Source: Lachnospira eligens
GTDB lineage: Bacteria > Bacillota > Clostridia > Lachnospirales > Lachnospiraceae
Reading direction: 5' to 3'
DNA: 64,000 nt
Assembly: GCF_009680455.1 (NCBI RefSeq)
Contig: NZ_WKRD01000012.1
Location: forward strand, 14,989 to 78,988
Shown here in pieces: positions 44,512 through 64,000 of this stretch (position 1 is its first letter; every line of letters begins with the position of its first letter). A program made the position numbers and the translations under genes. Below the pieces are notes generated by a model. It was not told the DNA's origin, made no database searches, and worked only from the letters and a program-made list of their open reading frames with translations.

Positions 44512-44703
44512 CCTATAAGATTGTTTTTTATAGAGGTTTTATAGGCTGTTTTCAGACAGAAAAAGTGTTTTCGGTGCGGAATTACCTATAAGGCTGGCAC
44601 GAGGAAGCTTTTGATAGGTGGATTGAGAGATAAAATGACTGGTTTAGCAGGCAATTTGCTGAAATTGTCCTATAAGAACTTGACTAATGCGACTATCTAT
44701 AGG
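44512..44703 (+). repeat. Triple inverted-repeat element, copy A
   Basis: In the 399-nt gap between the glycosyltransferase and the DXS-like gene. Three units: 44512-44545, 44585-44618 and 44669-44703, each opening with CCTATAAG and closing with a pairing arm (TTTATAGG, TTGATAGG, TCTATAGG) after an 18-19-nt centre. Spacers are 39 and 50 nt. The same layout with different arm sequence recurs at 54634 and 63898. The remaining gap holds only the terminator listed next. Confidence 0.75.
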
Positions 44704-44775
44704 TATCACGTCAAATATGCATGTATTTAATCATGCCACAGCCATTATGGAAACTAAAGACAGGGATAAATTCTA

Positions 44776-44819
44776 AAAAGACATGACAGTCATTGATAAA
44801 AATGATTGCCATGTCTTTT
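44776..44819 (-). terminator. Terminator of the DXS-like gene, likely bidirectional
   Basis: 19-nt arms 44776-44794 and 44801-44819 (AAAAGACATG...CATGTCTTTT) with one mismatch and one G-T pair, 6-nt loop; T run on the minus strand after the hairpin. Confidence 0.85.
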
Positions 44820-44841
44820 CGATTATAATGAAACAATATAG

Positions 44842-46596
44842 TTATAATGTTGCTGCGATATCTTCTGCAATCTGTTCAGGAGTAAGGTGGTTGTCCTTTA
44901 ATACTTCTGATGCATCGTATCTGTCGATAAATTCTTTCTTAATACCGAAGTTTAATACCTTCATATCAGAAGAACCATAGTATGCTGCAATCTTAGCTCC
45001 GAAGCCGCCTTCAAGGTAGCCGTCCTCAAGAGTTGCAACTACTGCGTGGTCTTTCTTTAATTCATTAAGAGTGTCTGCGTCAATACCTGAGATATAGTAA
45101 GGATTGATAACAGTTGCGTCAATTCCGTGTGAAGTCTTAAGAATATTAGCGGCTTTTACAGCAGTTTCATAGAAAGTTCCAAGCCCGAGGATAGCAACTC
45201 TGCTTCCTTTCTTAGTAATCTCGTAAGTGTCAAGCTTGCTGAAATCTTTAGTTACAGGTACACCTGTTGAAATCATGCTGCCGCCCGGAACTTTAATAGC
45301 AACAGGATACTCATTCTGTGTTAAAGACCAGTCAAGCATTGCAATATAATCTTCCTTGGTAACAGGTGCAAGATATATAAGTCCCGGAATGCTGTTGAGC
45401 ATAGGGATATCCTGAAGTCCGAGATGTGTAACATCATTCATCCCGTACACAGAGCCTGCAAATACTGTAAATGTTACAGGACTGCCATTGATACATACAT
45501 CCTGAGTAATCTGGTCATAGGCTCTCTGTATAAATGAGCTGTAAACACCAAATACAGGCTTTCCGCCGTTAGCAGCGATACCGGAAGCCAACGCAACAGC
45601 AGTTTCCTCTGCGATACCAACATCAACAAACTGTTTTCCTGCTTTAGCTCTCATGTCAGCAGTAAATCCCATAACAGTAGGAGTTCCGGCTGTGATTGCA
45701 ACAACACTCTTATCATCGTCCATCTTCTTTAACAGATATTCTAAAGAAGCGTCAGAGAAATCAGGCTCTCCGCCCTTGGAAAGAGATTCGCCGGTTGCTA
45801 TATCAAAAGGTGCATGCCAGTGCCATTTTTCTTTATTCTGCTCGGCAGGTGCATAACCTTTGCCTTTAAGAGTATTAATGTGGACAACAACAGCTTTTGT
45901 AGTGTCTTTAACCTTTTCAAATGCTTCAATTAAAGAAGCAATATCATTACCCTTGTCAACATAGATATAATCAAGGTTCATTGCCTTAAAAAGATTACAT
46001 TCAGCCTGTCCATTTGTTTCACGAAGAAGCTTTAAATTAGCATAAAGACCACCGTGATTTTCAGCGATGGACATATCGTTATCATTAGCAACAATAATCA
46101 TGTTGCTATTTAATTCAGAAGCAAAATCAAGACCCTCCAGAGCCTCACCGCCGCTTAAGGAACCATCACCTATAACAGCGATTATATTACCATCTTCACC
46201 GTTTAAATCTCTTGCTTTGGCAAGACCGCAGGCAAGACTTATAGAAGTTGAAGTATGACCTACAGTAAAGAAATCATGTTCGCTTTCGTCCGGATTAGTG
46301 TATCCTGACACATCATCATAATGTTCCTCATAAAGATATGCATCTTTTCTTCCGGTAAGCATTTTGTGAGGATAGCACTGGTGTGATACATCAAATACGA
46401 TTTTATCTTTAGGCGAATCAAATACATAATGCATGGCGATGATTGCTTCTACCATACCGAAGTTAGGACCAAAATGTCCGCCGTGTTTGCTGGCTCTTGT
46501 AAGAAGGGCGTGACGCATTTCTTCTGCAAGGACATTAAGCTGCATAATGTTTAATTTCTTCACATCAGCAGGACTGTTAATATTCTCAATATACAT
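44842..46596 (-). CDS. DXS-like thiamine-diphosphate enzyme, substrate arginines absent
   Basis: 584-residue transketolase-family protein most similar to 1-deoxy-D-xylulose-5-phosphate synthase. ThDP features: GGHFGPNFGMVEAIIAMHYV, VSHQCYPHKMLTGR, VGHTSTSISLA, VIGDGSLSGGEA (Mg site), GIAEE (catalytic Glu) and YSSFIQRAYDQ. It is shorter than typical DXS (about 620). Where DXS has the phosphate-binding DRAG arginine this protein reads F379-A-G-S, where DXS has ADGPTH it reads N387-D-V-T-H, and the YPRG arginine is V436-P-G-G. So it may use another acceptor, and the true dxs may be elsewhere. Alone between the accessory region and the pyr genes. Confidence 0.75.
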   Translation of the reverse strand: MYIENINSPADVKKLNIMQLNVLAEEMRHALLTRASKHGGHFGPNFGMVEAIIAMHYVFDSPKDKIVFDVSHQCYPHKMLTGRKDAYLYEEHYDDVSGYTNPDESEHDFFTVGHTSTSISLACGLAKARDLNGEDGNIIAVIGDGSLSGGEALEGLDFASELNSNMIIVANDNDMSIAENHGGLYANLKLLRETNGQAECNLFKAMNLDYIYVDKGNDIASLIEAFEKVKDTTKAVVVHINTLKGKGYAPAEQNKEKWHWHAPFDIATGESLSKGGEPDFSDASLEYLLKKMDDDKSVVAITAGTPTVMGFTADMRAKAGKQFVDVGIAEETAVALASGIAANGGKPVFGVYSSFIQRAYDQITQDVCINGSPVTFTVFAGSVYGMNDVTHLGLQDIPMLNSIPGLIYLAPVTKEDYIAMLDWSLTQNEYPVAIKVPGGSMISTGVPVTKDFSKLDTYEITKKGSRVAILGLGTFYETAVKAANILKTSHGIDATVINPYYISGIDADTLNELKKDHAVVATLEDGYLEGGFGAKIAAYYGSSDMKVLNFGIKKEFIDRYDASEVLKDNHLTPEQIAEDIAATL

Positions 46597-46637
46597 GTTT
46601 TCTGATACTCCTTATCTTATATTTTAATACATTTTAT

Positions 46638-46668
46638 ATCATAGCACCTAAAGTTAGGTTTAGGTCAA
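46638..46668 (-). promoter_or_regulatory. Putative promoter/operator of the DXS-like gene
   Basis: On the minus strand TTGACC (46668-46663) with TATGAT (46643-46638) at a long 19-nt spacing, or GCTATG at 17. The spacer holds an inverted repeat CCTAAA-N6-TTTAGG (46647-46664) that could be an operator. Confidence 0.35.
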
Positions 46669-46820
46669 GAGGAATGTGTTGGGAGTTTGTAGAAGTAAAT
46701 TCTGAAAGATAGCAATTATATCTGATTAGCATGGATTAATTACTAAATGTCACATCAATATTGAAAGCTGATTGTTAAAATGATAAAGTTACCTTATAAA
46801 ATATGAAAATGAGGATTTAA

Positions 46821-47582
46821 ATGAAAAAAGTAGAGATAGCAGTATGCGATGATGAATATATACATGTAGAGAGGATTGTCAAATATATTGGAGTGTATTC
46901 TGAAGAGTGTGAAATTGATATCAATGTGACCGAATACAATTCTGGAAAGTTATTGTTAGAAGCTGTTGAGGGAGATACATCTAAATATGATATTATATTT
47001 CTAGATGTTGAGATGCCGGATTTTGATGGTGTGGATACAGCAAGAGGTATCCGTAAAGTTTCAGAAGATGTAATAATATGTTTTGTGACCAGCTTTGATA
47101 AATATGCCATAGCAGCTTATGGGGTAGAAGCACTTGCTTATGTTGTCAAACCTGTTACTTATCCAGAATTAAAAAGAGTACTTGGAAGGGCCGTTGTTAT
47201 GGTTCAGTATGCTTTTGACCATAAAGAAGCAGAAGAAAGGTACATAGAAGTTCAGGTTGCTAAAAATACAAGAATAGTAGATGTAAGAAATATTCAGTAT
47301 ATTGAAAAAAGGAGAAATCAATGTGTACTTCATTGTTCAGATGCTGAGATAACATGTTATGAAACATTGAAAAAGATGTATGGCAAACTAGATAAAAATA
47401 TATTTATATATATACATCAGGGTTATATAGTAAATTTTGATGCAATAAAAGAGGTTAAAGAAAATGCAGTATTTCTTGGAGATGGAGTAGAAGTGCCATT
47501 GAGCAGAAGTCACTATAAATCAGTTAAAGAAAGACATATGAGTAAGATAAGAAAGCTACTTGAAGAAAGAAAAATGAATTGA
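46821..47582 (+). CDS. LytTR-family response regulator
   Basis: 253-residue AgrA/ComE-type regulator. Receiver domain (1-125) with CDDE acidic pair, phospho-Asp in IIFLDVEMPDFDG, FVTSFDKYA switch and VVKPV lysine. The LytTR DNA-binding domain (about 145-245) has VQVAKNTRIVDVRNIQYIEK and HQGYIVNFDAIKEV. It probably acts with the GHKL kinase encoded opposite, and LytTR-type repeats lie at 48962. Unusually, kinase and regulator genes are convergent, not in one operon. GAGG lies before the ATG. Confidence 0.92.
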   Translation: MKKVEIAVCDDEYIHVERIVKYIGVYSEECEIDINVTEYNSGKLLLEAVEGDTSKYDIIFLDVEMPDFDGVDTARGIRKVSEDVIICFVTSFDKYAIAAYGVEALAYVVKPVTYPELKRVLGRAVVMVQYAFDHKEAEERYIEVQVAKNTRIVDVRNIQYIEKRRNQCVLHCSDAEITCYETLKKMYGKLDKNIFIYIHQGYIVNFDAIKEVKENAVFLGDGVEVPLSRSHYKSVKERHMSKIRKLLEERKMN

Positions 47583-47613
47583 CATACTTTACATAAAAAT
47601 AATTAAGCTATTA

Positions 47614-48900
47614 TTATATGTAATTAGGAATAAGAATATCAATGCTGAAAACAGATTCATTATAATTGATATCCAGTGTTCCGCCACTTTTTTCTACAGC
47701 ATTAGTTATACTTATTATGCCCAGACCATGTAGTGAATTAGAATTCAAACCAGTAGAAGGCTTGCTTGAAATAAAGCGGCCTTCTCTTTTTTTGATTTTT
47801 TCGTTGTGATTGTTTTCGCAATGTATTGAGAGATAAGTATCAGCTTGTGAGATTGAAAGTCTGATGTATCCATTGTCAGTTTTAGACGCAGCAGTTATGG
47901 CATTATCAAGAATATTGCCAAGAATTGTTATAAGTGTAAAGTCACTTATATAAATATTATTGAAATCAAGCTGGAGGTCAAAAGTTATATCTGAATCATC
48001 ACATATAAGTTTTTTAGAGTTAAGCAGAGAAGATATAGTGGAAGATGAAGATGAAATAGTTTGAGTCTGACTGAGTTCGTCTGATATTTTAGATATGTAA
48101 TCGTGAATTTGCTCGTTTTTATATTCCGCAGAAAGGCTGTCTATCATGAGAAGGTGGTTTTTCATATCGTGTCTTAAAGTATGAAGCTGTTGTAATTTGT
48201 TATCAATCTGTGTGGTGTATTCGGCTTCTAAAGCGGATTTTTCAAGCTGAATTTTGTTGATAGCATTTTCTTCAAGTGTAAATATTATTTTACTATAAGT
48301 AGAGAGACAAAATGTTATTATAAATGCAATTAATACAAAAAACACAGGAAGAACCTGTTCTAAATTGAGTAAAGAAGGCTCAATAAGGACAGGTGATATC
48401 GAAAGCGCAATAATTGTAGCTATTGATATAGAATAATAAAGAAAAATAAATGATTTAGCTGAATTAAATTCTTTAACTTTTTTAGTATTGAAATACATGC
48501 AGGCAACTATATAAGAAGCAATTATACTTGAAATGGTATTGTAATTATTATACAGTTGATTGTTATATAATTGGTGAAAATCCTTTAATATAACCATGCG
48601 GATACCAAGAATTGCAATGGCAGACATGTAAGAATAAACATAATATTCTGCAAGAACAATCATACGCTGATATAATTTCTTATCACAGCATATAAGAATC
48701 TGCATACAGGTTAAGACATCTATTATGTATGAGCAAGAATAAAATCCAGAGATATCATATAATATTGTTGCCAGTAGAAAAAAAGGCATAAGAATATGTT
48801 GAAGTTTATGATTCTTCGTGTTAAATGTAATAAATAAATTTATAATTAAAAAGCCAAATAAATCCCCAATTATATGAAAAAATATTGAATAAAAATCCAT
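47614..48900 (-). CDS. GHKL sensor histidine kinase (AgrC-like)
   Basis: 428-residue membrane kinase. Six or seven TM segments in the first 210 residues, a coiled-coil linker, then LHTLRHDMKNHLLMIDSL with the phosphorylated His (HDMKNHL, typical of AgrC/ComD-type peptide-pheromone receptors). The ATPase has LGNILDNAITAA (N box) and GLGIISI (G box). The start at 48900 has AAGGGGAT upstream; the longer frame to 48939 lacks one. Such kinases sense secreted peptides; the double-glycine peptides encoded divergently are candidates. Confidence 0.9.
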   Translation of the reverse strand: MDFYSIFFHIIGDLFGFLIINLFITFNTKNHKLQHILMPFFLLATILYDISGFYSCSYIIDVLTCMQILICCDKKLYQRMIVLAEYYVYSYMSAIAILGIRMVILKDFHQLYNNQLYNNYNTISSIIASYIVACMYFNTKKVKEFNSAKSFIFLYYSISIATIIALSISPVLIEPSLLNLEQVLPVFFVLIAFIITFCLSTYSKIIFTLEENAINKIQLEKSALEAEYTTQIDNKLQQLHTLRHDMKNHLLMIDSLSAEYKNEQIHDYISKISDELSQTQTISSSSSTISSLLNSKKLICDDSDITFDLQLDFNNIYISDFTLITILGNILDNAITAASKTDNGYIRLSISQADTYLSIHCENNHNEKIKKREGRFISSKPSTGLNSNSLHGLGIISITNAVEKSGGTLDINYNESVFSIDILIPNYI

Positions 48901-48961
48901 TAAAAATCCCCTTTTTATAACATTATTTTTATTATACATAATTAAAAATTTAAGTCAATTT

Positions 48962-49016
48962 ATACCAAATAGCACTGTTTGAATACCAAACAGCATATGG
49001 ACATTGTATTTATAAT
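48962..49016 (+). promoter_or_regulatory. LytTR-type direct repeats and -10 element of the peptide operon
   Basis: ATACCAAATAGCA (from 48962) and ATACCAAACAGCA (from 48983) are direct repeats with a 21-nt period, the 9-bp plus 12-bp-gap geometry of ComE/AgrA-class sites. A perfect TATAAT follows at 49011-49016; the -35 position (about 48988) falls within the second repeat and has no -35 consensus, as at activator-dependent promoters. The site is also in the divergent region upstream of the kinase gene. Confidence 0.7.
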
Positions 49017-49056
49017 TTCCAGATGTTATCTTGAATACAAGAGAGGAGATGAACAT

Positions 49057-49176
49057 ATGCAAAATACGCAATTTAGAGAATTAGAGGAACAAGAGATATT
49101 TGTTATTCAGGGTGGAGAATATGACAGAATAAATTCATGCTTTAATAGAGAAATAAATAATGAATTCAAGAAATAA
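49057..49176 (+). CDS. Double-glycine-leader peptide 1 (pheromone or bacteriocin precursor)
   Basis: 39 residues. Leader MQNTQFRELEEQEIFVIQGG ends in Gly-Gly with hydrophobic residues at -4, -7 and -12, the pattern recognised by C39-peptidase ABC exporters. The predicted mature peptide is 19 residues, charged, with a single Cys (EYDRINSCFNREINNEFKK). GAGAGGAG lies upstream. It stands directly behind the LytTR repeats, so it is the best candidate for the autoinducing peptide of the adjacent kinase/regulator pair. The gene overlaps the CPBP gene by 17 nt. Confidence 0.72.
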   Translation: MQNTQFRELEEQEIFVIQGGEYDRINSCFNREINNEFKK

Positions 49177-49834
49177 ATTAATGCTGAAATGGATAGGGAT
49201 TCTGTACATTTTAGGTACAATAATAGTAGCAACTACTGTTGTTTCAATAACATTTTTACTGGGAAAAGATATAAGCATGGATATGCTTACACATATAACA
49301 AGCTGTGTGATATACATAATTGCTGGAATGATTACAATAAAGTTATATTGGGGCATTATATATAAAGATTTTGGTAATACAAAATCCCTGTGTTCGTGGA
49401 TTTGGAAGACTATTATGTTTTCGATTATATATCTTATTATAAATATTTTGCTTACCAGATTATTATATTTACTGAATAATCTGATGATTACCCATAATGA
49501 ACAGATTATAAGTGGATACGATAATTCCGGGATAGTAACTGTGTTGAGTGTTATAGCAATGTGCTTTATGGGGCCATTGGTAGAAGAAATTTTATTCAGA
49601 TATATATATCAGAATTGGTTGGTCAGTAAGATGAAGATGTGCAATGGAATAATAGCCATAGTTATTGTATCAATTTCGTTTGGTATGATTCATAGCGGAT
49701 TGTCAGTTCTTGAATTAAGTTATTATTCAATATTAGGATTAATATTAGGACTTATATATGACCATACAGATAGTATTACAATGGTTATAATGATACATAT
49801 GATTAACAATACAGTTGGAATGTTGACTGATTAA
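49160..49834 (+). CDS. CPBP-family intramembrane metalloprotease
   Basis: 224-residue polytopic protein (about seven TM segments). The CPBP/Abi motifs are present: EEILFRYIYQNWL (EExxxR), SFGMIHSG (His) and MIHMINNTVG. In class II bacteriocin loci such proteins often act as self-immunity factors or in peptide maturation, and the position between double-glycine peptides fits that. The start at 49160 overlaps peptide 1; no strong ribosome site is visible, suggesting translational coupling. An ATG at 49181 is an alternative. Confidence 0.87.
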   Translation: MNSRNKLMLKWIGILYILGTIIVATTVVSITFLLGKDISMDMLTHITSCVIYIIAGMITIKLYWGIIYKDFGNTKSLCSWIWKTIMFSIIYLIINILLTRLLYLLNNLMITHNEQIISGYDNSGIVTVLSVIAMCFMGPLVEEILFRYIYQNWLVSKMKMCNGIIAIVIVSISFGMIHSGLSVLELSYYSILGLILGLIYDHTDSITMVIMIHMINNTVGMLTD

Positions 49835-49872
49835 TAATGAAAATAATAAATTAAGATTTAGAGGTGATTATT

Positions 49873-50034
49873 ATGAAAAAAGGTTTTACAGAAATAAAGA
49901 CAAGTGAATTACAGGAAATAAATGGTGGAGGTATATTAACGGGATTATTGGCTGCAGGAGGAGTATTTCTTACTATAGTGGGGATTGCACAGTGCTGTTA
50001 CGATTTATATAATGGTTGGAATGATTATAAATAA
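49873..50034 (+). CDS. Double-glycine-leader peptide 2 (class II bacteriocin-like)
   Basis: 53 residues, too short for ordinary gene calling. Leader MKKGFTEIKTSELQEINGG, then a hydrophobic, glycine-rich mature peptide of 34 residues starting GILTGLLAAGGVFLTIVGIA and ending with CCYDLYNGWNDYK. A GxxxG motif (GILTG) and one amphipathic or TM-like helix are typical of two-peptide bacteriocins. GAGGTG is 9 nt upstream. It lies 38 nt after the CPBP gene and 22 nt before peptide 3. Confidence 0.8.
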   Translation: MKKGFTEIKTSELQEINGGGILTGLLAAGGVFLTIVGIAQCCYDLYNGWNDYK

Positions 50035-50056
50035 AAATTGAGGGGAATTATTTGTT

Positions 50057-50203
50057 ATGGAATTTGAAAATATGAATGACAGTGAAATATTATTAATTCA
50101 AGGTGGGGGTAAAGGCGATATTTTTTATGATTTAGGTTGGTGGTTAGCATCAAAATATAAAGATGTTGGCGGTAATACAGGTATTTCTGGTGGGCATTTT
50201 TAG
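50057..50203 (+). CDS. Double-glycine-leader peptide 3 (class II bacteriocin-like)
   Basis: 48 residues. Leader MEFENMNDSEILLIQGG resembles that of peptide 1; the mature part of 31 residues starts GKGDIFYDLGWWLASKYKD and is rich in Gly and aromatic residues, ending GGHF. GAGGGGA lies 11 nt before the ATG. With peptide 2 it could form a two-component bacteriocin. No exporter or C39 peptidase gene is in the window. Confidence 0.77.
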   Translation: MEFENMNDSEILLIQGGGKGDIFYDLGWWLASKYKDVGGNTGISGGHF

Positions 50204-50295
50204 GTGTAATAATATAATGCTGTTATTTGTATATGGCGGTTTATTTAGATGACTTATATTGGACAAATTAAGTTATGATATAAAGGAGTTGAGAT

Positions 50296-50472
50296 TTGAA
50301 AAATAAAATTTTAAAAATCGTTCTATTTATTATGTCATTAATATATATAATGTCTAATGTTTATACATTGATTGCATATCATAAGGTGACAATCAGAAAT
50401 ATTATTATGCTATTACTGCTCTTAATATGTTTGATTGGTTTGATTATTTTAAAATATAAAGATAATAAGTGA
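50296..50472 (+). CDS. Small two-TM protein, candidate immunity protein
   Basis: 58-residue protein starting from TTG (50296) with AAAGGAG 8 nt upstream. Two hydrophobic segments (about 7-27 and 35-52) and basic ends. Size, topology and position directly after bacteriocin-like peptides are typical of bacteriocin immunity proteins, but no sequence family is recognised. Strong terminators follow 25 and 66 nt later, closing the operon. Confidence 0.6.
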   Translation: MKNKILKIVLFIMSLIYIMSNVYTLIAYHKVTIRNIIMLLLLLICLIGLIILKYKDNK

Positions 50473-50496
50473 AATGTCAAACATTTGAAATGTATA

Positions 50497-50523
50497 CCCC
50501 CACGAGGAGGTAGCTCGTGGGGG
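50497..50523 (+). terminator. GC-rich hairpin after peptide operon
   Basis: Perfect 10-bp stem CCCCCACGAG (50497-50506) with CTCGTGGGGG (50514-50523), 7-nt loop. No T tract follows; it may act with the next hairpin. Confidence 0.7.
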
Positions 50524-50537
50524 TTCGTGCATAGCTT

Positions 50538-50603
50538 GAATATAGTTATCTATCCAATGGCATTATGTCATGCGTTATTGGATAGATAACTATATTCTTT
50601 TTT
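50538..50603 (+). terminator. Long perfect-stem terminator
   Basis: 21-bp perfect stem (50538-50558 with 50577-50597), 18-nt loop, followed by six T. Ends the peptide operon and insulates the following ATPase gene. Confidence 0.9.
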
Positions 50604-50650
50604 AATGGAAGGATAAAATATTTGTTATAAGGAAATAATGTTTCAAAAAC

Positions 50651-50765
50651 AATCGAATTGAAAATTGAAAATTAATCGGATTGAAAATATGAAATCAATC
50701 GGATTGGAAATCAAAAATCTGTCGGGTTGTAATTGAAAAATTAATCGGGTTGGATTATAATGATG
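50651..50765 (+). repeat. Five 23-bp tandem direct repeats (operator/iteron-like)
   Basis: Units begin at 50651, 50674, 50697, 50720 and 50743, exactly 23 nt apart. Cores: AATCGAATTG, AATCGGATTG, AATCGGATTG, TGTCGGGTTG, AATCGGGTTG, each followed by an A-rich half. The core is itself nearly palindromic (CAATC-G-GATTG). Units 4 and 5 overlap the -35 and -10 of the promoter for the ATPase at 50838. It lies in the 365-nt gap after the peptide operon; nothing else was seen there. Confidence 0.85.
50733..50761 (+). promoter_or_regulatory. Sigma-A promoter of the AAA/DUF4143 gene
   Basis: TTGAAA (50733-50738), 17-nt spacer, TATAAT (50756-50761), embedded in repeats 4 and 5 of the 23-bp array, so a protein bound to the array would control it. 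Confidence 0.75.
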
Positions 50766-50837
50766 AAGAAGAAAATGTATATAGATTAAGCTTAAACCAA
50801 TAATATTAATAATATATAAGAATAGAATGGAGAGAAT

Positions 50838-52112
50838 ATGGAAAGAAAGGATTACAGACCAAGACTGATTGACAATATAATTGATAGTTATTTAGAGGCA
50901 TTTGGTGCAGTATGTGTGGAGGGACCGAAGTGGTGTGGAAAAACTTGGACATCATCATATCATTGCCAAAGTGAAATTATGCTTGGCAATCCCGATGGTA
51001 ATTTTCAAAATAGACAGTTGGCACAGATGAGTCCTTCATTGGTTTTAGAAGGAGAAACACCGAGATTGATTGATGAATGGCAGGAAGTTCCCCAGTTATG
51101 GGATGCTGTCAGATATAAGGTTGACCAAAATGGTAATAAAGGGCAGTTTATATTGACGGGCTCTGCGACACCAAATCATAAAGGAATATTGCATAGCGGA
51201 GCAGGAAGAATTGCAAAATTGAGAATGCGACCAATGTCATTATTTGAAAGCGGAAATTCCAGTGGAGATATTTCATTAAGAGATATATGTGAGGGCAGAA
51301 TAGAGCCTAAGATACTAGGTGAGGTTGATTTGAGAAAGCTTATTGATTTCATTATAAGAGGAGGCTGGCCTGCTAATCAGGAGACAACATTAAAACAGGC
51401 GGCATATCTTCCTATACAGTACATCCGGGCTGTATTAGACGATGATGTATATAGAATTGATAATGTAAAAAGAGATAAGCATAAAATGGAGCTTCTTCTT
51501 CGTTCACTTGCAAGAAATGAAGCAACAACTGTAACAAATAAGAAATTAAAAAATGACATTAAGGAAATTGATAATGAAGATATTGATGTGGAAACAGTTG
51601 CTGCTTATCTTGATGTTTTCCAAAGACTTTTCCTCACAGACAATCAGAAACCTTTTGAGGCTAAACTTAGATCATCAATCCGCATTAAGCAGGCGGAAAA
51701 GAGACATTTGTCAGACCCATCATTAGCAGTCGCATTGTTAAATGCGACACCTGAAATGTTACTGAATGATTTAAATACATTGGGATTCTTATTCGAAGCA
51801 TTGTGTGAAAGAGATTTGAAAATATATGCTGAGTCATTTGATGCAGAATTGTATCATTATCAGGATTATAATAACAATGAAATGGATGCAGTTATAGCAA
51901 TGCCTGATGGAAAATGGTGTGGATTCGAAATCAAATTGGGTGCAAACCAAATAGATATGGCGGCAGAGAATCTTATAAAAATAAAAAATGAAATTAAAGC
52001 AAGTGGAGGAATTGCGCCAGATTCGTTATGTGTTATATGCGGATTATCTAATGCTGCATATCAAAGACCTGATGGAGTATTTGTTGTTCCGATTACAGCG
52101 TTAAGAAATTGA
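50838..52112 (+). CDS. AAA-family ATPase with DUF4143 domain
   Basis: 424-residue cytoplasmic protein of the AAA_14/DUF4143 group. Walker A is in VEGPKWCGKTWTS (about 28-40), Walker B-like LIDEWQEVPQLWDAVR, and FILTGSATP is sensor 1. The C-terminal half (about 190-424) is DUF4143 with a nuclease-like end: AVIAMPDGKWCGFEIKLGANQ resembles the PD-(D/E)xK core ExK. Function is not established; such genes are common in anaerobes and often travel with accessory DNA. GGAGAG precedes the ATG. Unlike neighbours it has a repeat array at its promoter. Confidence 0.87.
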   Translation: MERKDYRPRLIDNIIDSYLEAFGAVCVEGPKWCGKTWTSSYHCQSEIMLGNPDGNFQNRQLAQMSPSLVLEGETPRLIDEWQEVPQLWDAVRYKVDQNGNKGQFILTGSATPNHKGILHSGAGRIAKLRMRPMSLFESGNSSGDISLRDICEGRIEPKILGEVDLRKLIDFIIRGGWPANQETTLKQAAYLPIQYIRAVLDDDVYRIDNVKRDKHKMELLLRSLARNEATTVTNKKLKNDIKEIDNEDIDVETVAAYLDVFQRLFLTDNQKPFEAKLRSSIRIKQAEKRHLSDPSLAVALLNATPEMLLNDLNTLGFLFEALCERDLKIYAESFDAELYHYQDYNNNEMDAVIAMPDGKWCGFEIKLGANQIDMAAENLIKIKNEIKASGGIAPDSLCVICGLSNAAYQRPDGVFVVPITALRN

Positions 52113-52179
52113 TATTTGAACAGTTGAAATCACTCAATATCCATGATAACATAATAAACGAGTAGTTTTACAAAAACAA

Positions 52180-52256
52180 AAGAGAGGTAAACCTGCAGAA
52201 ATGCAGGGACACAAAGCTACAAGTCTAAGTTGATTCAGTAGTCTGGGGAGTATTGG
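52180..52256 (+). ncRNA. Cyclic-di-GMP-I riboswitch (GEMM)
   Basis: Matches the GEMM-I core: GAGGTAAACC, P2 stem TGCA/TGCA closed by a GAAA tetraloop, GGGACACAAAGC, then TCTAAG tetraloop receptor and a GTCTGGGGAG 3' strand. By alignment to Vibrio Vc2 from memory, the ligand-specifying position 20 is G (52186), favouring c-di-GMP over cGAMP, and position 47 is A. It lies between the ATPase gene and an SMI1/KNR4 gene. Confidence 0.82.
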
Positions 52257-52285
52257 ATATATTGAAGATATAAGATGGTTGAGTT

Positions 52286-52330
52286 GCAGATGATGTCACG
52301 GAATGTGATGTTGTCTGCTTTTTTGTTTTT
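52286..52330 (+). terminator. Riboswitch expression-platform terminator
   Basis: 14-bp stem (52286-52299 with 52305-52318, several G-T pairs), 5-nt loop GGAAT, followed by six T, G and five T. Placed 30 nt after the GEMM aptamer and before the ribosome site at about 52331, it is suited to ligand-controlled termination. Confidence 0.8.
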
Positions 52331-52353
52331 GGAGGAAAGAGAGGATAATAAAT

Positions 52354-52851
52354 ATGTATACAAAGATAGGGATACCAGAAAATAACAGTTTAAAGAGCAA
52401 GATTGAAGAATTATATGAGTGGTGTGACAAGCGGGACAATGATGATGAGCTTGGAAAAACATATTTTAATGAACCAATAGATGAAGATAAATTAAATAAA
52501 TGGGAGGAGGCAAATGGCGTAAAGATTCCAGAGACATATAAGGAATGGCTCAGATTTACAGAAAAATGTCTGATTGATGGATCGAGTGCAATGTTTTGGG
52601 GAACAGATGATTTCCATCATAATTTTATGCCAGATAATCTGACGGTTATAGGAGAAATGTCAGGAGATGGAGAAGTAGTATGCTTCTCCAATGATAATGG
52701 CGAATTCATGGGATATTATGAAGGTGATATTACATATAGAACAAATGATTTTTCTCAGGTTATTGACCAGATATTTGAGAGAAACAGTGCATGGGGTGGA
52801 ATGTCTAAGGAAGCTATGGAATTATTTATGAAATTTTGTGAAGAAGAATAA
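52354..52851 (+). CDS. SMI1/KNR4 (SUKH) family protein
   Basis: 165-residue cytoplasmic acidic protein. The SUKH fold is recognised by INEDKLNKWEEANGVKIPETYKEWLRF-like segment (about 45-70), then a TDDFHHNFMPDNLTVIGEMSGDGEVVCF strand region and a Gly/Asp-rich loop. SUKH proteins are typical immunity proteins of polymorphic toxin systems, though some have other roles. No toxin gene is beside it. It stands behind a GEMM riboswitch and terminator, so expression should respond to c-di-GMP. GGAGG and GAGAGGA sites precede the ATG. Confidence 0.82.
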   Translation: MYTKIGIPENNSLKSKIEELYEWCDKRDNDDELGKTYFNEPIDEDKLNKWEEANGVKIPETYKEWLRFTEKCLIDGSSAMFWGTDDFHHNFMPDNLTVIGEMSGDGEVVCFSNDNGEFMGYYEGDITYRTNDFSQVIDQIFERNSAWGGMSKEAMELFMKFCEEE

Positions 52852-52917
52852 AAGAAAAAGCAGAAATGGAACACGATGATTAATATATCACGGGTTCGGT
52901 ATAAAGAGGGAAAATGT

Positions 52918-52968
52918 ATGACAGCAATAATAGCTGCTTCATTAGCTGTAGCGTTGATATGGCATTAA
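52918..52968 (+). pseudogene. Truncated copy of the small membrane gene at 53552
   Basis: 16-codon frame MTAIIAASLAVALIWH, with upstream GAGGGAAAATGT, closely resembles the start of the gene at 53552 (MAAIIVVALVAAWLF, with AAGGGAAAATAT upstream). The remainder is missing. It precedes the first 166-residue paralog just as the intact copy precedes the second, so it looks like the remnant left after tandem duplication. Confidence 0.6.
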
Positions 52969-53007
52969 TTATTAATGTGCTTTAATAAAGAGATGCGGGG
53001 TAAAATT

Positions 53008-53508
53008 ATGAAATATATATATGACTATATTTCAGAAGAAAGAAAAAAAGAAATAGCAGATATGAATATTGTTGATACATATCAACATACAGGGTATTTA
53101 AAGATTCCCACAGGTAGAGTTGTTAAAAGTAAGGATGAGCATCTTTTATTATGGAATAATTTAGCAGATACACTTTGTCTTAGGCAACAAATAGAAGAAA
53201 CAAGTTCATCAGATATTGGAAAAGAAAGATATATATTCATATATGGTGATAAATATATGAATATAGAGATACCTGATGAAAATTGGATGGAAAAGGATGA
53301 ATATCCCAATAATGATCCAACGTTTAATATAAATACAGAAAAAATGAAACAATATAACACAATTGATTTAAGCTTTTTAAGGAACTGTGGATATAAAAAT
53401 GAAATATGTAAGATGCTTTCAAAATATATACATAGTTCGGCTGCATGGTTTAGAATTATAAAAAATAAAATTTTTATTGATGATGAAATTATAGTGGAGG
53501 AATTCTGA
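53008..53508 (+). CDS. Uncharacterised 166-residue protein, paralog 1
   Basis: Acidic cytoplasmic protein beginning MKYIYDYISEERKKEIADM, about 70 percent identical by eye to the protein at 53889. Shared blocks: VKSKDE, DTLCLRQQIEET, IYGDKYM, EKMKQYNTIDLSFLR and a conserved C-terminal WF-I-KNKI-ID-EI. No known family recognised. Size, duplication and the neighbouring SUKH gene suggest an immunity-like role, but this is inference. Start at 53008 chosen by alignment with the paralog; ribosome site GCGGGG is moderate. Confidence 0.75.
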   Translation: MKYIYDYISEERKKEIADMNIVDTYQHTGYLKIPTGRVVKSKDEHLLLWNNLADTLCLRQQIEETSSSDIGKERYIFIYGDKYMNIEIPDENWMEKDEYPNNDPTFNINTEKMKQYNTIDLSFLRNCGYKNEICKMLSKYIHSSAAWFRIIKNKIFIDDEIIVEEF

Positions 53509-53551
53509 TTGAAGTATATAATTAATTTTATGAGTGTGAAAGGGAAAATAT

Positions 53552-53863
53552 ATGGCAGCAATAATAGTAGTTGCATTAGTTGCAGCTTGGTTATTTATAG
53601 GAAATTATATTCCAAAGCTAATAAGGTATATTATAAGTGGTATATTAGATGTTGTAGCAATAGTGTTATTTATAGTGACACCAATGAATCTTATTATAAG
53701 AATAATAATTATAGCTCTATTGGCTTTTATGGCAATCATATGGCTAGCTAAGTTTAACAGATTTAATGGTAATAAAAAGATAGATTGGGGACAATCAAGA
53801 GTAGACGGCATTATGTTTACAGCAGGTGTGATAATAATTACATTAATTATTGATTTGTTTTAA
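53552..53863 (+). CDS. Small three/four-TM membrane protein
   Basis: 103-residue, strongly hydrophobic protein (AAIIVVALVAAWLFIGNYI, IISGILDVVAIVLFIV, LIIRIIIIALLAFMAIIWLA and a C-terminal IMFTAGVIIITLIIDLF) with a short basic loop (KFNRFNGNKK) and a GQSRVDG stretch. No family recognised. It lies between the two paralogous 166-residue genes; a truncated copy precedes the first. AAGGG lies before the ATG. Possibly the membrane partner in a duplicated two-gene module. Confidence 0.7.
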   Translation: MAAIIVVALVAAWLFIGNYIPKLIRYIISGILDVVAIVLFIVTPMNLIIRIIIIALLAFMAIIWLAKFNRFNGNKKIDWGQSRVDGIMFTAGVIIITLIIDLF

Positions 53864-53888
53864 TAGAAATAAAAAACGAGGTAAAATT

Positions 53889-54389
53889 ATGGATTATATA
53901 TATGATTATATTTCAGAAGAAAGAAAAAAAGAAATAGCAGATATGAATATTGTTGATACATATAATCGTACGGGATATTTAGACATTCCAGGGGATAAGG
54001 TTGTCAAAAGCAAAGATGAATATTTTTTATTTTGGTATAATTCACCGGATACACTTTGTCTCAGGCAGCAGATAGAAGAAACAGGCTCGTCTAGTATTGG
54101 AAAAAAAAGATATATGCTCATATATGGTGATAAATATATGGATATCGAGATACCTAATGAGAATTTTGGAACAGAATATGAATATCCTGATAATAATTCG
54201 GGATTTGACAAAAATACGGAAAAAATGAAACAATACAATACTATAGACTTAAGCTTTTTAAGAGATTGTGAATATAAAAATGATATATGTAATATGCTTT
54301 CGGAATACATACATGGTTCTGCTGTGTGGTTTAAAATTATGAAAAATAAAATTACTATTGACAATGAAATTATGGTGAAGGAGTTTTGA
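53889..54389 (+). CDS. Uncharacterised 166-residue protein, paralog 2
   Basis: Second member of the tandem pair: MDYIYDYISEERKKEIADMN, VVKSKDEYFLFW, DTLCLRQQIEET, IYGDKYMDIEIP, EKMKQYNTIDLSFLRDC and HGSAVWFKIMKNKITID. Differences from paralog 1 cluster in the region of residues 40-50 and 95-115. CGAGG precedes the ATG. No function known. The stop is followed by 627 nt without a gene before pyrE. Confidence 0.75.
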   Translation: MDYIYDYISEERKKEIADMNIVDTYNRTGYLDIPGDKVVKSKDEYFLFWYNSPDTLCLRQQIEETGSSSIGKKRYMLIYGDKYMDIEIPNENFGTEYEYPDNNSGFDKNTEKMKQYNTIDLSFLRDCEYKNDICNMLSEYIHGSAVWFKIMKNKITIDNEIMVKEF

Positions 54390-54633
54390 GCTTTGTTAAT
54401 CGAGATTTAAAAGAAAATGAAAGAAGCGATTATGTGCTGGAATATCTCATATGTGATTAGAAATATAAAAATCGTGTTTTTAAGTTTGAAGGTGTAACTT
54501 TTGTTTTCCAAACGATTGGGGAGAGATATACATAAAGTTTTGATAAAAGGTGTGGAAACCTATTAATTCAGTGTTCGATGTAAATTTGGTATATTATTTT
54601 GGCACATATTCAAGATAATTGACAGTAACAAGA

Positions 54634-54828
54634 CCTACTAATCAGGCAGGAAGAAGCCTTTTTAGTAGGTTTTATAAGTATAAAATGAATGTTCATTCCT
54701 CTGGAAAGCAGGAAAAAGACCTACTAAGGAGAAACATTTTAACAGATTGGTAGGTGAACTGGCGGGAGAATGAAAAGCGGCTGCCTGAAATAACCTACTA
54801 AATTATGAGATTGATAATGGTTAGTGGG
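54634..54828 (+). repeat. Triple inverted-repeat element, copy B
   Basis: Inside the 627-nt gap upstream of pyrE. Units 54634-54669, 54720-54754 and 54794-54828 all open with CCTACTAA and close with TTAGTAGG, TTGGTAGG and TTAGTGGG (G-T pairs kept), centres 19-20 nt. Spacers 50 and 39 nt. Spacer 50 shares TAAAATGA and AGCAGG with the 50-nt spacer of copy A. The rest of the gap (54390-54633) is AT-rich with no recognised feature. Confidence 0.8.
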
Positions 54829-63897: not shown

Positions 63898-64000
63898 CCT
63901 ACTAAACTTAGAAAATATATATTAATAGTAGCTTCCTGTATAATTCAAAGTGTAAAGAGTAAATGATTTTACAAAAATAGATACCTAAGTTAAACTGTCA
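63898..64000 (+). repeat. Triple inverted-repeat element, copy C (cut by window end)
   Basis: Unit 1 at 63898-63932 starts CCTACTAA and closes with TAGTAGC after a 19-20-nt centre. A further CCTA (CCTAAGTT) begins at 63984, 86 nt downstream, the same offset as between units 1 and 2 of copy B. The window ends before its closing arm, so the copy is provisional. Confidence 0.5.

What the first reader, a model, noticed from the sequence alone, without database searches (positions are those of the whole stretch)
54634..54828. Second copy of the triple element upstream of pyrE, arms covarying
Units at 54634, 54720, 54794 open with CCTACTAA and close with TTAGTAGG, TTGGTAGG, TTAGTGGG. The arm changes relative to copy A are compensated in both strands, and G-T pairs are kept. 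Gaps are 50 and 39 nt, the reverse order of copy A. Spacers of equal length share short words (TAAAATGA, AGCAGG). This is stronger evidence than copy A alone that the unit is a real element, possibly mobile or a small structured RNA.
Basis: seen in the sequence. Interest (0 to 1): 0.8.

Follow-up and report, generated by a model that had tools for sequence, protein, structure and literature searches.

The report
Helically phased palindrome arrays between genes
The triple repeat is one copy of a family of DNA arrays in a small group of gut bacteria, whose spacing in whole turns of the double helix suggests that a protein binds and wraps this DNA between genes.

Summary
The three units exist exactly as described and belong to a genome-wide family. 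In the nearest held genome (G001, 93% identical here) I found 22 arrays of 2-5 units (69 units): inverted 8-bp arms, CCTATAAR or CCTACTAA, 17-20 bp apart. All 47 start-to-start spacings (partners sought at 60-105 bp) are 73-75, 82-86 or 93-95 bp, that is 7, 8 or 9 helical turns; four related species repeat this (47 of 49). A/T-rich patches recur every ~10.5 bp around units (0 of 1000 phase-randomised controls). Orthologous arms diverge 2.7%, loops 9.6%. The "covariation" is two array dialects: an arm matches its own partner no better than other units' arms. So this is a DNA-level element, most likely wrapped by a sequence-specific protein; it is not a covarying RNA, and no transposition was seen. 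Most CCTATAAR-type arrays carry a 21-bp asymmetric tail (TRCGACTAYYKATAGGTATCA). A tail model matches clearly in 5 of 22 genus genomes and in 0 of 78 from other genera of the family. No binding protein is identified; gyrase is the best known analogue. Some units double as transcription terminators.

The parts
54559..54593 (.). Array B, unit 0: decayed unit (CCTATTAA...TTGGTATA), 75 bp before unit 1; intact CCTACTAG...ATAGTAGG in G001
54634..54669 (.). Array B, unit 1: CCTACTAA-N20-TTAGTAGG (inner AGGC/GCCT stem in the loop)
54720..54754 (.). Array B, unit 2: CCTACTAA-N19-TTGGTAGG, 86 bp after unit 1
54794..54828 (.). Array B, unit 3: CCTACTAA-N19-TTAGTGGG, 74 bp after unit 2
54670..54719 (.). 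Array B, long gap (50 bp)
   Evidence: A/T phasing of internal gaps shown for the family, not for this gap alone
54755..54793 (.). Array B, short gap (39 bp)
44512..44545 (+). Array A, unit 1: CCTATAAG-N18-TTTATAGG
44585..44618 (+). Array A, unit 2: CCTATAAG-N18-TTGATAGG, 73 bp after unit 1
44669..44703 (+). Array A, unit 3: CCTATAAG-N19-TCTATAGG, 84 bp after unit 2; tail unit
44688..44708 (+). Conserved asymmetric tail TGCGACTATCTATAGGTATCA, overlapping the last right arm; sets the orientation of tail-bearing arrays
   Evidence: model R1 match 44669-44712, 45.6 bits

Best explanation
The arrays are DNA elements, not RNA genes. A sequence-specific protein, probably a dimer because the two arms are inverted and equivalent, reads the CCTA core of both arms in the major groove; the DNA between and beside the arms bends towards the protein through A/T-rich minor-groove patches every ~10.5 bp. 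Because units are 7, 8 or 9 helical turns apart, all units face the same side and join into one wrapped or looped complex of about 110-350 bp in intergenic DNA, over-represented between convergent genes. Its likely job is architectural: constraining supercoils or acting as a barrier where transcription of neighbouring genes ends. The conserved tail marks one end for a second, asymmetric contact. Shown by computation: arm conservation, spacing quantisation, A/T phasing, array dialects, tail, lineage restriction. Inferred: the protein, the groove contacts, the wrapping and the function.
For: Spacing: 47 of 47 in 73-75 (17), 82-86 (24), 93-95 (6), none at 76-81 or 87-92, partners sought at 60-105 bp. 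Repeated in G018 17 of 19 (others 51, 76), G012 16 of 16, G009 11 of 11, G231 3 of 3, sought at 50-110 bp. A/T fraction peaks at 0, 11, 21, 31, 41, 51 and about 60 bp from the unit centre; test over 19-59 bp: 0 of 1000 phase-randomised controls reach it; stronger in internal gaps than in outer flanks. Both half-sites share one profile, AAAAtA-CCTA(TA/CT)A(A/G)-W. Ortholog divergence: arms 12/447, loops 47/492, gaps 104/1143, flanks 107/1443; Fisher p 1e-5, 3e-6, 1e-4 for arms against each (tail units, 18/348, left out). Covariation is array-level. Convergent gene pairs 9 of 24 loci vs 63 of 474 background gaps, p 0.004.
Against: No binding protein is identified; HU (PF00216) and ParB (PF02195) counts do not follow array presence. 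Arm starts are 25-28 bp apart, wide for a simple dimer. Some units are real terminators: at locus C1:630655 the only unit in G231 is an orthologous intrinsic-terminator stem (17 bp by eye), and 18 of 71 units look terminator-like by a crude rule. Own loops fold slightly better than shuffled loops (mean z -0.29; 28% below -1, 11% above 1). The window's own units show 5 G.T and 1 A.C on the + strand (by eye). The convergent background rests on greedy ORF calls. With weaker partner units admitted, 6 of 54 spacings fell outside the classes (72, 79, 79, 97, 63, 23).
Confidence: 0.66

Rival explanations
1. The arrays are strong gyrase-wrapping sites, an analogue of BIME-2: each ~35-bp unit is the central segment and each phased gap is DNA wrapped by a GyrA C-terminal domain, placed where convergent transcription builds positive supercoils. 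No clade-specific protein would be needed.
For: The E. coli gyrase motif has a symmetric centre of 36 bp (-16 to 19) and two 47-bp flanks with 10.75-bp periodic GC content, and BIME-2 palindromes hold gyrase sites (PMC6379681, passages). Here: 33-36-bp units, gaps of mostly 49 or 39 bp with ~10.5-bp A/T phasing, and convergent enrichment.
Against: The gyrase motif is degenerate, whereas the arms are nearly invariant (A at arm position 4 in 71 of 71 units, although units were chosen by an arm consensus). An 84-bp period is too short for one ~130-bp gyrase per unit. Gyrase is near-universal (recalled) but the tail-bearing arrays are restricted to a few species.
Confidence: 0.15
2. The arrays are tandem bidirectional transcription terminators (RNA hairpins) at gene ends, close to the first reader's structured RNA.
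For: A-rich tract before and T-rich tract after the hairpin; enrichment between convergent genes; G231 has an orthologous plain terminator at one array locus; at another locus G012 and G009 have unrelated terminator-like hairpins (by eye); array B folds strongly on both strands.
Against: No pair-level covariation, no wobble bias in G001, AT-rich stems with 17-20-nt loops. Terminators need neither a fixed arm sequence, nor 10-bp-quantised spacing, nor A/T phasing 31-59 bp out, nor an asymmetric tail.
Confidence: 0.1
3. The arrays are old non-autonomous mobile elements: phased sites for a transposase or recombinase, the tail being the reacting end.
For: A conserved asymmetric tail at one end; the arrays C1:381932 and C1:1534127 are visibly related in G001, and the AF22-9 ortholog of the second (L173) is 86% identical to the first over 401 bp; arrays also occur on the 627-kb replicon.
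Against: 14 of 17 tails in sister species lie at loci with an array or tail unit in G001; no clean empty site with target duplication was seen at the loci compared; arms are under selection; no transposase seen between the closest pair of arrays; Y1 transposase not found in G012, which has the arrays.
Confidence: 0.09

Closest known systems
REP / BIME elements (BIME-2, RIB/RIP) of enterobacteria and others
   Same: Extragenic, regularly spaced palindromes in clusters, segments between repeats unrelated, some clusters with two repeat types, proposed roles in chromosome organisation and termination (PMC2817692, passages); RIBs at 3' ends of transcription units (title in its reference list).
   Different: No RAYT linkage, 22 arrays rather than >100 copies, only 8-bp arms conserved with unconserved loops, spacing in whole helical turns, A/T phasing, asymmetric tail.
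Gyrase-wrapping sites (E. coli gyrase motif, BIME-2)
   Same: 36-bp centre plus 47-bp flanks with 10.75-bp composition period (PMC6379681, passages and one short section) resembles 33-36-bp unit plus phased gap.
   Different: Near-invariant arm sequence, multi-unit arrays with an 84-bp period, narrow lineage.
Phased A-tract (curved) DNA linked to nucleoid proteins
   Same: A/T runs in phase with the helix (PMC3940949, abstract only).
   Different: Here the phase is locked to a specific palindromic site and to quantised site spacing.
BOX elements of Streptococcus pneumoniae (recalled, no call)
   Same: Modular intergenic repeats with variable number of inner units and a distinct end module.
   Different: BOX modules are conserved along their length (recalled); here only arms, tail and geometry are.

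Membership tests
REP/BIME with RAYT | Cognate REP-associated tyrosine transposase (Y1_Tnp) in the genome | tested here: not met
   PF01797 has no match in G012 (99% complete, 12 tail-model matches); the G001 and G018 full-length copies carry a stop; copies occur in genus genomes without tail-model matches
REP/BIME with RAYT | Conserved palindrome body with GTAG-type tetranucleotide (recalled definition) | tested here: not met
   Only the arms are conserved and CCTATAAG/CTTATAGG contains no GTAG; CCTACTAA-type right arms TTAGTAGG do contain GTAG
REP/BIME with RAYT | Extragenic clusters of regularly spaced palindromes | tested here: met
   23 of 24 candidate loci not inside a predicted ORF; C2:357916 is inside one; 22 multi-unit arrays
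MITE | Terminal inverted repeats and target-site duplication at an insertion with an empty site elsewhere | tested here: inconclusive
   Tail on one end only; loci compared in sister species show unit loss or gain, truncation or replacement, no clean empty site
Structured RNA (covarying hairpins) | Compensatory changes specific to paired arms | tested here: not met
   Own partner matches no better than other units' arms in the same array
Structured RNA (covarying hairpins) | Match to a known Rfam family | tested here: not met
   No array match at gathering threshold; at E<=1 three matches far below their gathering scores for B and none for A
Intrinsic terminators | Stable stem with short loop and U-run | tested here: inconclusive
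   Met by some units (18 of 71 by a crude rule; the unit at C1:630739 and its orthologs), not by most
Gyrase-wrapping site | Symmetric ~36-bp centre with ~47-bp flanks of ~10.75-bp periodic composition | tested here: inconclusive
   Similar lengths and period; phase not comparable without the published matrix
Gyrase-wrapping site | Gyrase cleavage at the site in vivo | not testable with these tools
   Needs Topo-Seq
CRISPR array | Near-identical direct repeats of about 21-48 bp (recalled) | tested here: not met
   Conserved stretches are the 8-bp arms; loops and gaps differ; cas genes were not searched

The most novel reading that the evidence does not exclude
A new class of bacterial chromatin element: modular, intergenic, helically phased palindrome arrays on which a lineage-specific protein wraps DNA in register, nucleosome-like, with two recognition dialects and a directional end signal, insulating or topologically managing gene ends.
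Probability: 0.35. Interest if true: 0.85.

Novelty: new variant of a known kind. Interest (0 to 1): 0.63.

Why it matters
Sequence-encoded wrapping of DNA in helical register over one to several hundred base pairs, repeated at more than twenty places in one genome, is rarely visible from sequence alone. It gives concrete DNA baits to find the protein and a simple spacing test (5 bp against 10 bp), in what is by recall a common human gut commensal. It also warns that "covarying" inverted repeats need not be RNA: arms that change together can reflect dialects of a protein-binding site.

Tried and rejected
Pair-specific covariation: rejected by within-array permutation. RNA wobble: G.T and A.C about equally common in G001. 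Transposon with arrays as its two ends: between the closest pair of arrays in G001 (C1:630655 and 634193) I saw ABC-transporter-like and GntR-like ORFs, named by eye, and no transposase. RAYT, HU and ParB co-occurrence: no match to the presence pattern. Viral carriage: tail pattern absent from viral contigs; array B has no match in the plasmid collection (records near the window may be left out there). Gap words TAAAATGA and AGCAGG: not conserved in G001. A first divergence count mixed paralogs and tail units (arms 3.9% vs loops 14.4% for AF22-9, 5.2% vs 21.6% for S34M) and was replaced. Literature: seven listings showed no description of these arrays; the library lacks most subscription papers and all preprints, so this is weak evidence of novelty.

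Ascertainment: units were found by an arm consensus first seen in the window and G001, so arm conservation inside G001 is partly circular. Spacing inside the 60-105 bp search range, A/T phasing and ortholog divergence were not selected for; tail units were left out of the divergence test. The tail model cannot see CCTACTAA-type arrays without a tail in other genomes, so the stated distribution is that of tails. 25 kb of G001 contig C1 reads N and contig C3 was not examined. The period used for the Rayleigh figure (10.3) was chosen after seeing the data.

Full report
What is in the window. Array B has three intact units at 54634-54669, 54720-54754 and 54794-54828, each an inverted pair of 8-bp arms around a 19-20-bp spacer, with gaps of 50 and 39 bp. 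A further, decayed unit lies at 54559-54593; in the nearest held genome, G001, it is intact and 75 bp from the next. Array A (44512-44703) has the same geometry with left arms CCTATAAG. The window's own assembly is not held. G001 has contigs of 2,144,190 and 626,744 bp, which by recall fit Lachnospira (Eubacterium) eligens ATCC 27750; the genus name used here rests on that.

A genome-wide family. I fetched contigs C1 and C2 of G001 and searched them. Requiring at least two units that each match the arm consensus at 14 of 16 positions, there are 22 arrays with 69 units. By eye arrays carry CCTATAAR-type arms, 5 CCTACTAA-type arms and 3 mix both. A generic detector without any arm consensus gave 47 hits in C1; those beyond the CCTA arrays look like coding or tandem-repeat coincidences, which I did not check one by one. 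The same detector gave 2 hits in 1.5 Mb of Markov-1 sequence.

Spacing is quantised. Partners were sought at 60-105 bp. The 47 start-to-start spacings are 73-75 (17), 82-86 (24) and 93-95 (6), with none at 76-81 or 87-92 (Rayleigh R 0.88 at a period of 10.3 chosen after the fact). With weaker partners admitted, 6 of 54 fell outside (72, 79, 79, 97, 63, 23). In loci from four other species, sought at 50-110 bp, 47 of 49 spacings fall in the same classes: G018 17 of 19 (others 51 and 76), G012 16 of 16, G009 11 of 11, G231 3 of 3. Many of these are orthologs of G001 arrays, so they are not fully independent; G009 has a changed tail and a fresh 75-bp tandem duplication (L209).

The DNA is phased. 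Over 71 units the A/T fraction peaks at 0, 11, 21, 31, 41, 51 and about 60 bp from the unit centre. Tested outside the arms, from 19 to 59 bp, the power is greatest at 10.5 bp, and none of 1000 controls with random phase shifts per unit side reached it (observed 2.48, largest control 1.12). The signal is stronger in internal gaps (94 sides) than in outer flanks (44 sides). The conserved CC of each arm falls in the G/C phase and the inner end of the arm in the A/T phase. This fits DNA lying on a protein with A/T minor grooves facing inwards; that step is inference.

The arms are selected, the loops are not visibly so. Over 14 ortholog comparisons at 11 loci, leaving out tail units (18 of 348), arms differ at 12 of 447 positions, loops 47 of 492, gaps 104 of 1143, flanks 107 of 1443 (Fisher p 1e-5, 3e-6 and 1e-4 for arms against each).

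Not pair-level covariation. Arm positions 5 and 6 vary together (TA against CT). Permuting right arms within each array does not lower the match: own 113, permuted 117.4 +/- 2.2; all eight positions own 465, permuted 466.1 +/- 3.6. Pairing beyond the arm is not above shuffled partners (lowest p 0.06). G.T and A.C mismatches are about equally frequent in G001 (arm position 8: 13 and 14; tail-oriented arrays: 17 and 22). Results that point the other way: the six intact units of the window have 5 G.T and 1 A.C on the + strand (by eye); array B folds better than shuffles on both strands (z -4.6, -4.5), array A does not (z -0.5, -1.5); own loops fold slightly better than shuffled loops (mean z -0.29); 18 of 71 units look terminator-like by a crude rule. 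At C1:630655 one unit is an intrinsic terminator, by eye conserved from G231, where it is the only unit in the piece fetched, to G012 (2 units), G018 and G001 (4 units each).

A directional tail. TRCGACTAYYKATAGGTATCA or a close variant lies at the last right arm. By, 12 of the 14 CCTATAAR-type arrays (one as a variant; in C1:381932 it is in the third of four units) and 3 of 3 mixed arrays have it, and 0 of 5 CCTACTAA-type arrays, array B among them. An exact search found it 13 times in G001 and in none of 199 other genomes drawn across the family, in 17 stretches of the GTDB collection, all from Eubacterium sp. AF22-9 (10) or MAG S34M_St_44 (7), records near the window being left out there, and in no viral contig (pattern shorter by two bases). 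A sequence-only model of the tail unit matches 8 of 22 genus genomes at E<=0.1: clearly G001 (17 matches), G018 (15), G012 (12), G009 (8) and G231 (2), marginally G002, G015 and G019 (one each, E 0.01-0.06). Of 80 genomes drawn across the family, searched with stricter filters, only G001 matches; 78 of the 80 are from other genera. Contig lengths equate G018 with AF22-9 and G012 with S34M_St_44.

Evolution. Nine of 10 AF22-9 tails and 5 of 7 S34M tails lie at loci where G001 has an array or tail unit, judged by aligned flanks, in a few cases on one side only. Unit number changes in place. At C2:508896 G018 has one unit where G001 has four, and at C1:381932 two where G001 has four; both junctions fall at right arms. 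Three further loci show only the tail unit in a sister species (L172, L177, L181). Array B itself is truncated in G018, and absent in G012, where the stretch between the preceding ATPase-like gene and pyrE is much shorter. These fit unit loss and gain between short repeated arms rather than insertion of whole elements.

Context. Of 24 candidate loci (two with only one strong unit), 9 lie between convergent, 12 between co-directional and 3 between divergent ORFs. Against 474 intergenic gaps of at least 200 bp, convergent pairs are over-represented (9/24 vs 63/474, p 0.004); divergent pairs are not significantly fewer (p 0.44). Gene calls were greedy ORFs, so this is rough.

Mechanism and rivals. 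Best supported is a protein-bound, wrapped DNA array. The protein is unknown; Y1 transposase, HU and ParB counts do not follow the arrays. The most attractive known analogue is gyrase: its E. coli motif has a 36-bp centre and two 47-bp flanks with 10.75-bp periodic GC content, and gyrase binds BIME-2 palindromes (PMC6379681, passages and one short section). The strict arms, the 84-bp period and the narrow distribution argue for a separate sequence-specific protein, perhaps together with gyrase. Terminator and mobile-element readings are kept as rivals. Compared with BIMEs (PMC2817692, passages), the clustering, extragenic position and unrelated inter-repeat segments are alike; the RAYT link and conserved repeat body are not.

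Noticed in passing
window 52176-52291 (+): c-di-GMP-I riboswitch (Rfam RF01051, 61.7 bits) upstream of an ORF at 52354.
   Followed up: no
window 52975-53508 and 53850-54389: Two tandem ORFs of 177 and 179 aa, by eye paralogous, just upstream of array B.
   Followed up: no
window 63898-63932: A lone, partly decayed unit CCTACTAA-N19-ATAGTAGC after an ORF end.
   Followed up: partly
window 54549-54610: A block of about 60 bp at the first unit of array B that differs strongly between window and G001 while both sides are nearly identical; looks like local replacement.
   Followed up: no
window 44512-54828: Arrays A and B start 10.1 kb apart in the window but 5.8 kb apart in G001, so the stretch between them differs by about 4.3 kb.
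   Followed up: no
L200 about 1340-1480, and G001 C1 near 1438795: Another inverted-repeat element (AAAAAGTTCCTGC...GCAGGAACTTTTTT) beside a tail in G231, with similar sequence beside a solitary tail in G001.
   Followed up: no
L209 from 1501: Fresh 75-bp tandem duplication of a tail unit in G009, a direct view of how arrays may grow.
   Followed up: partly
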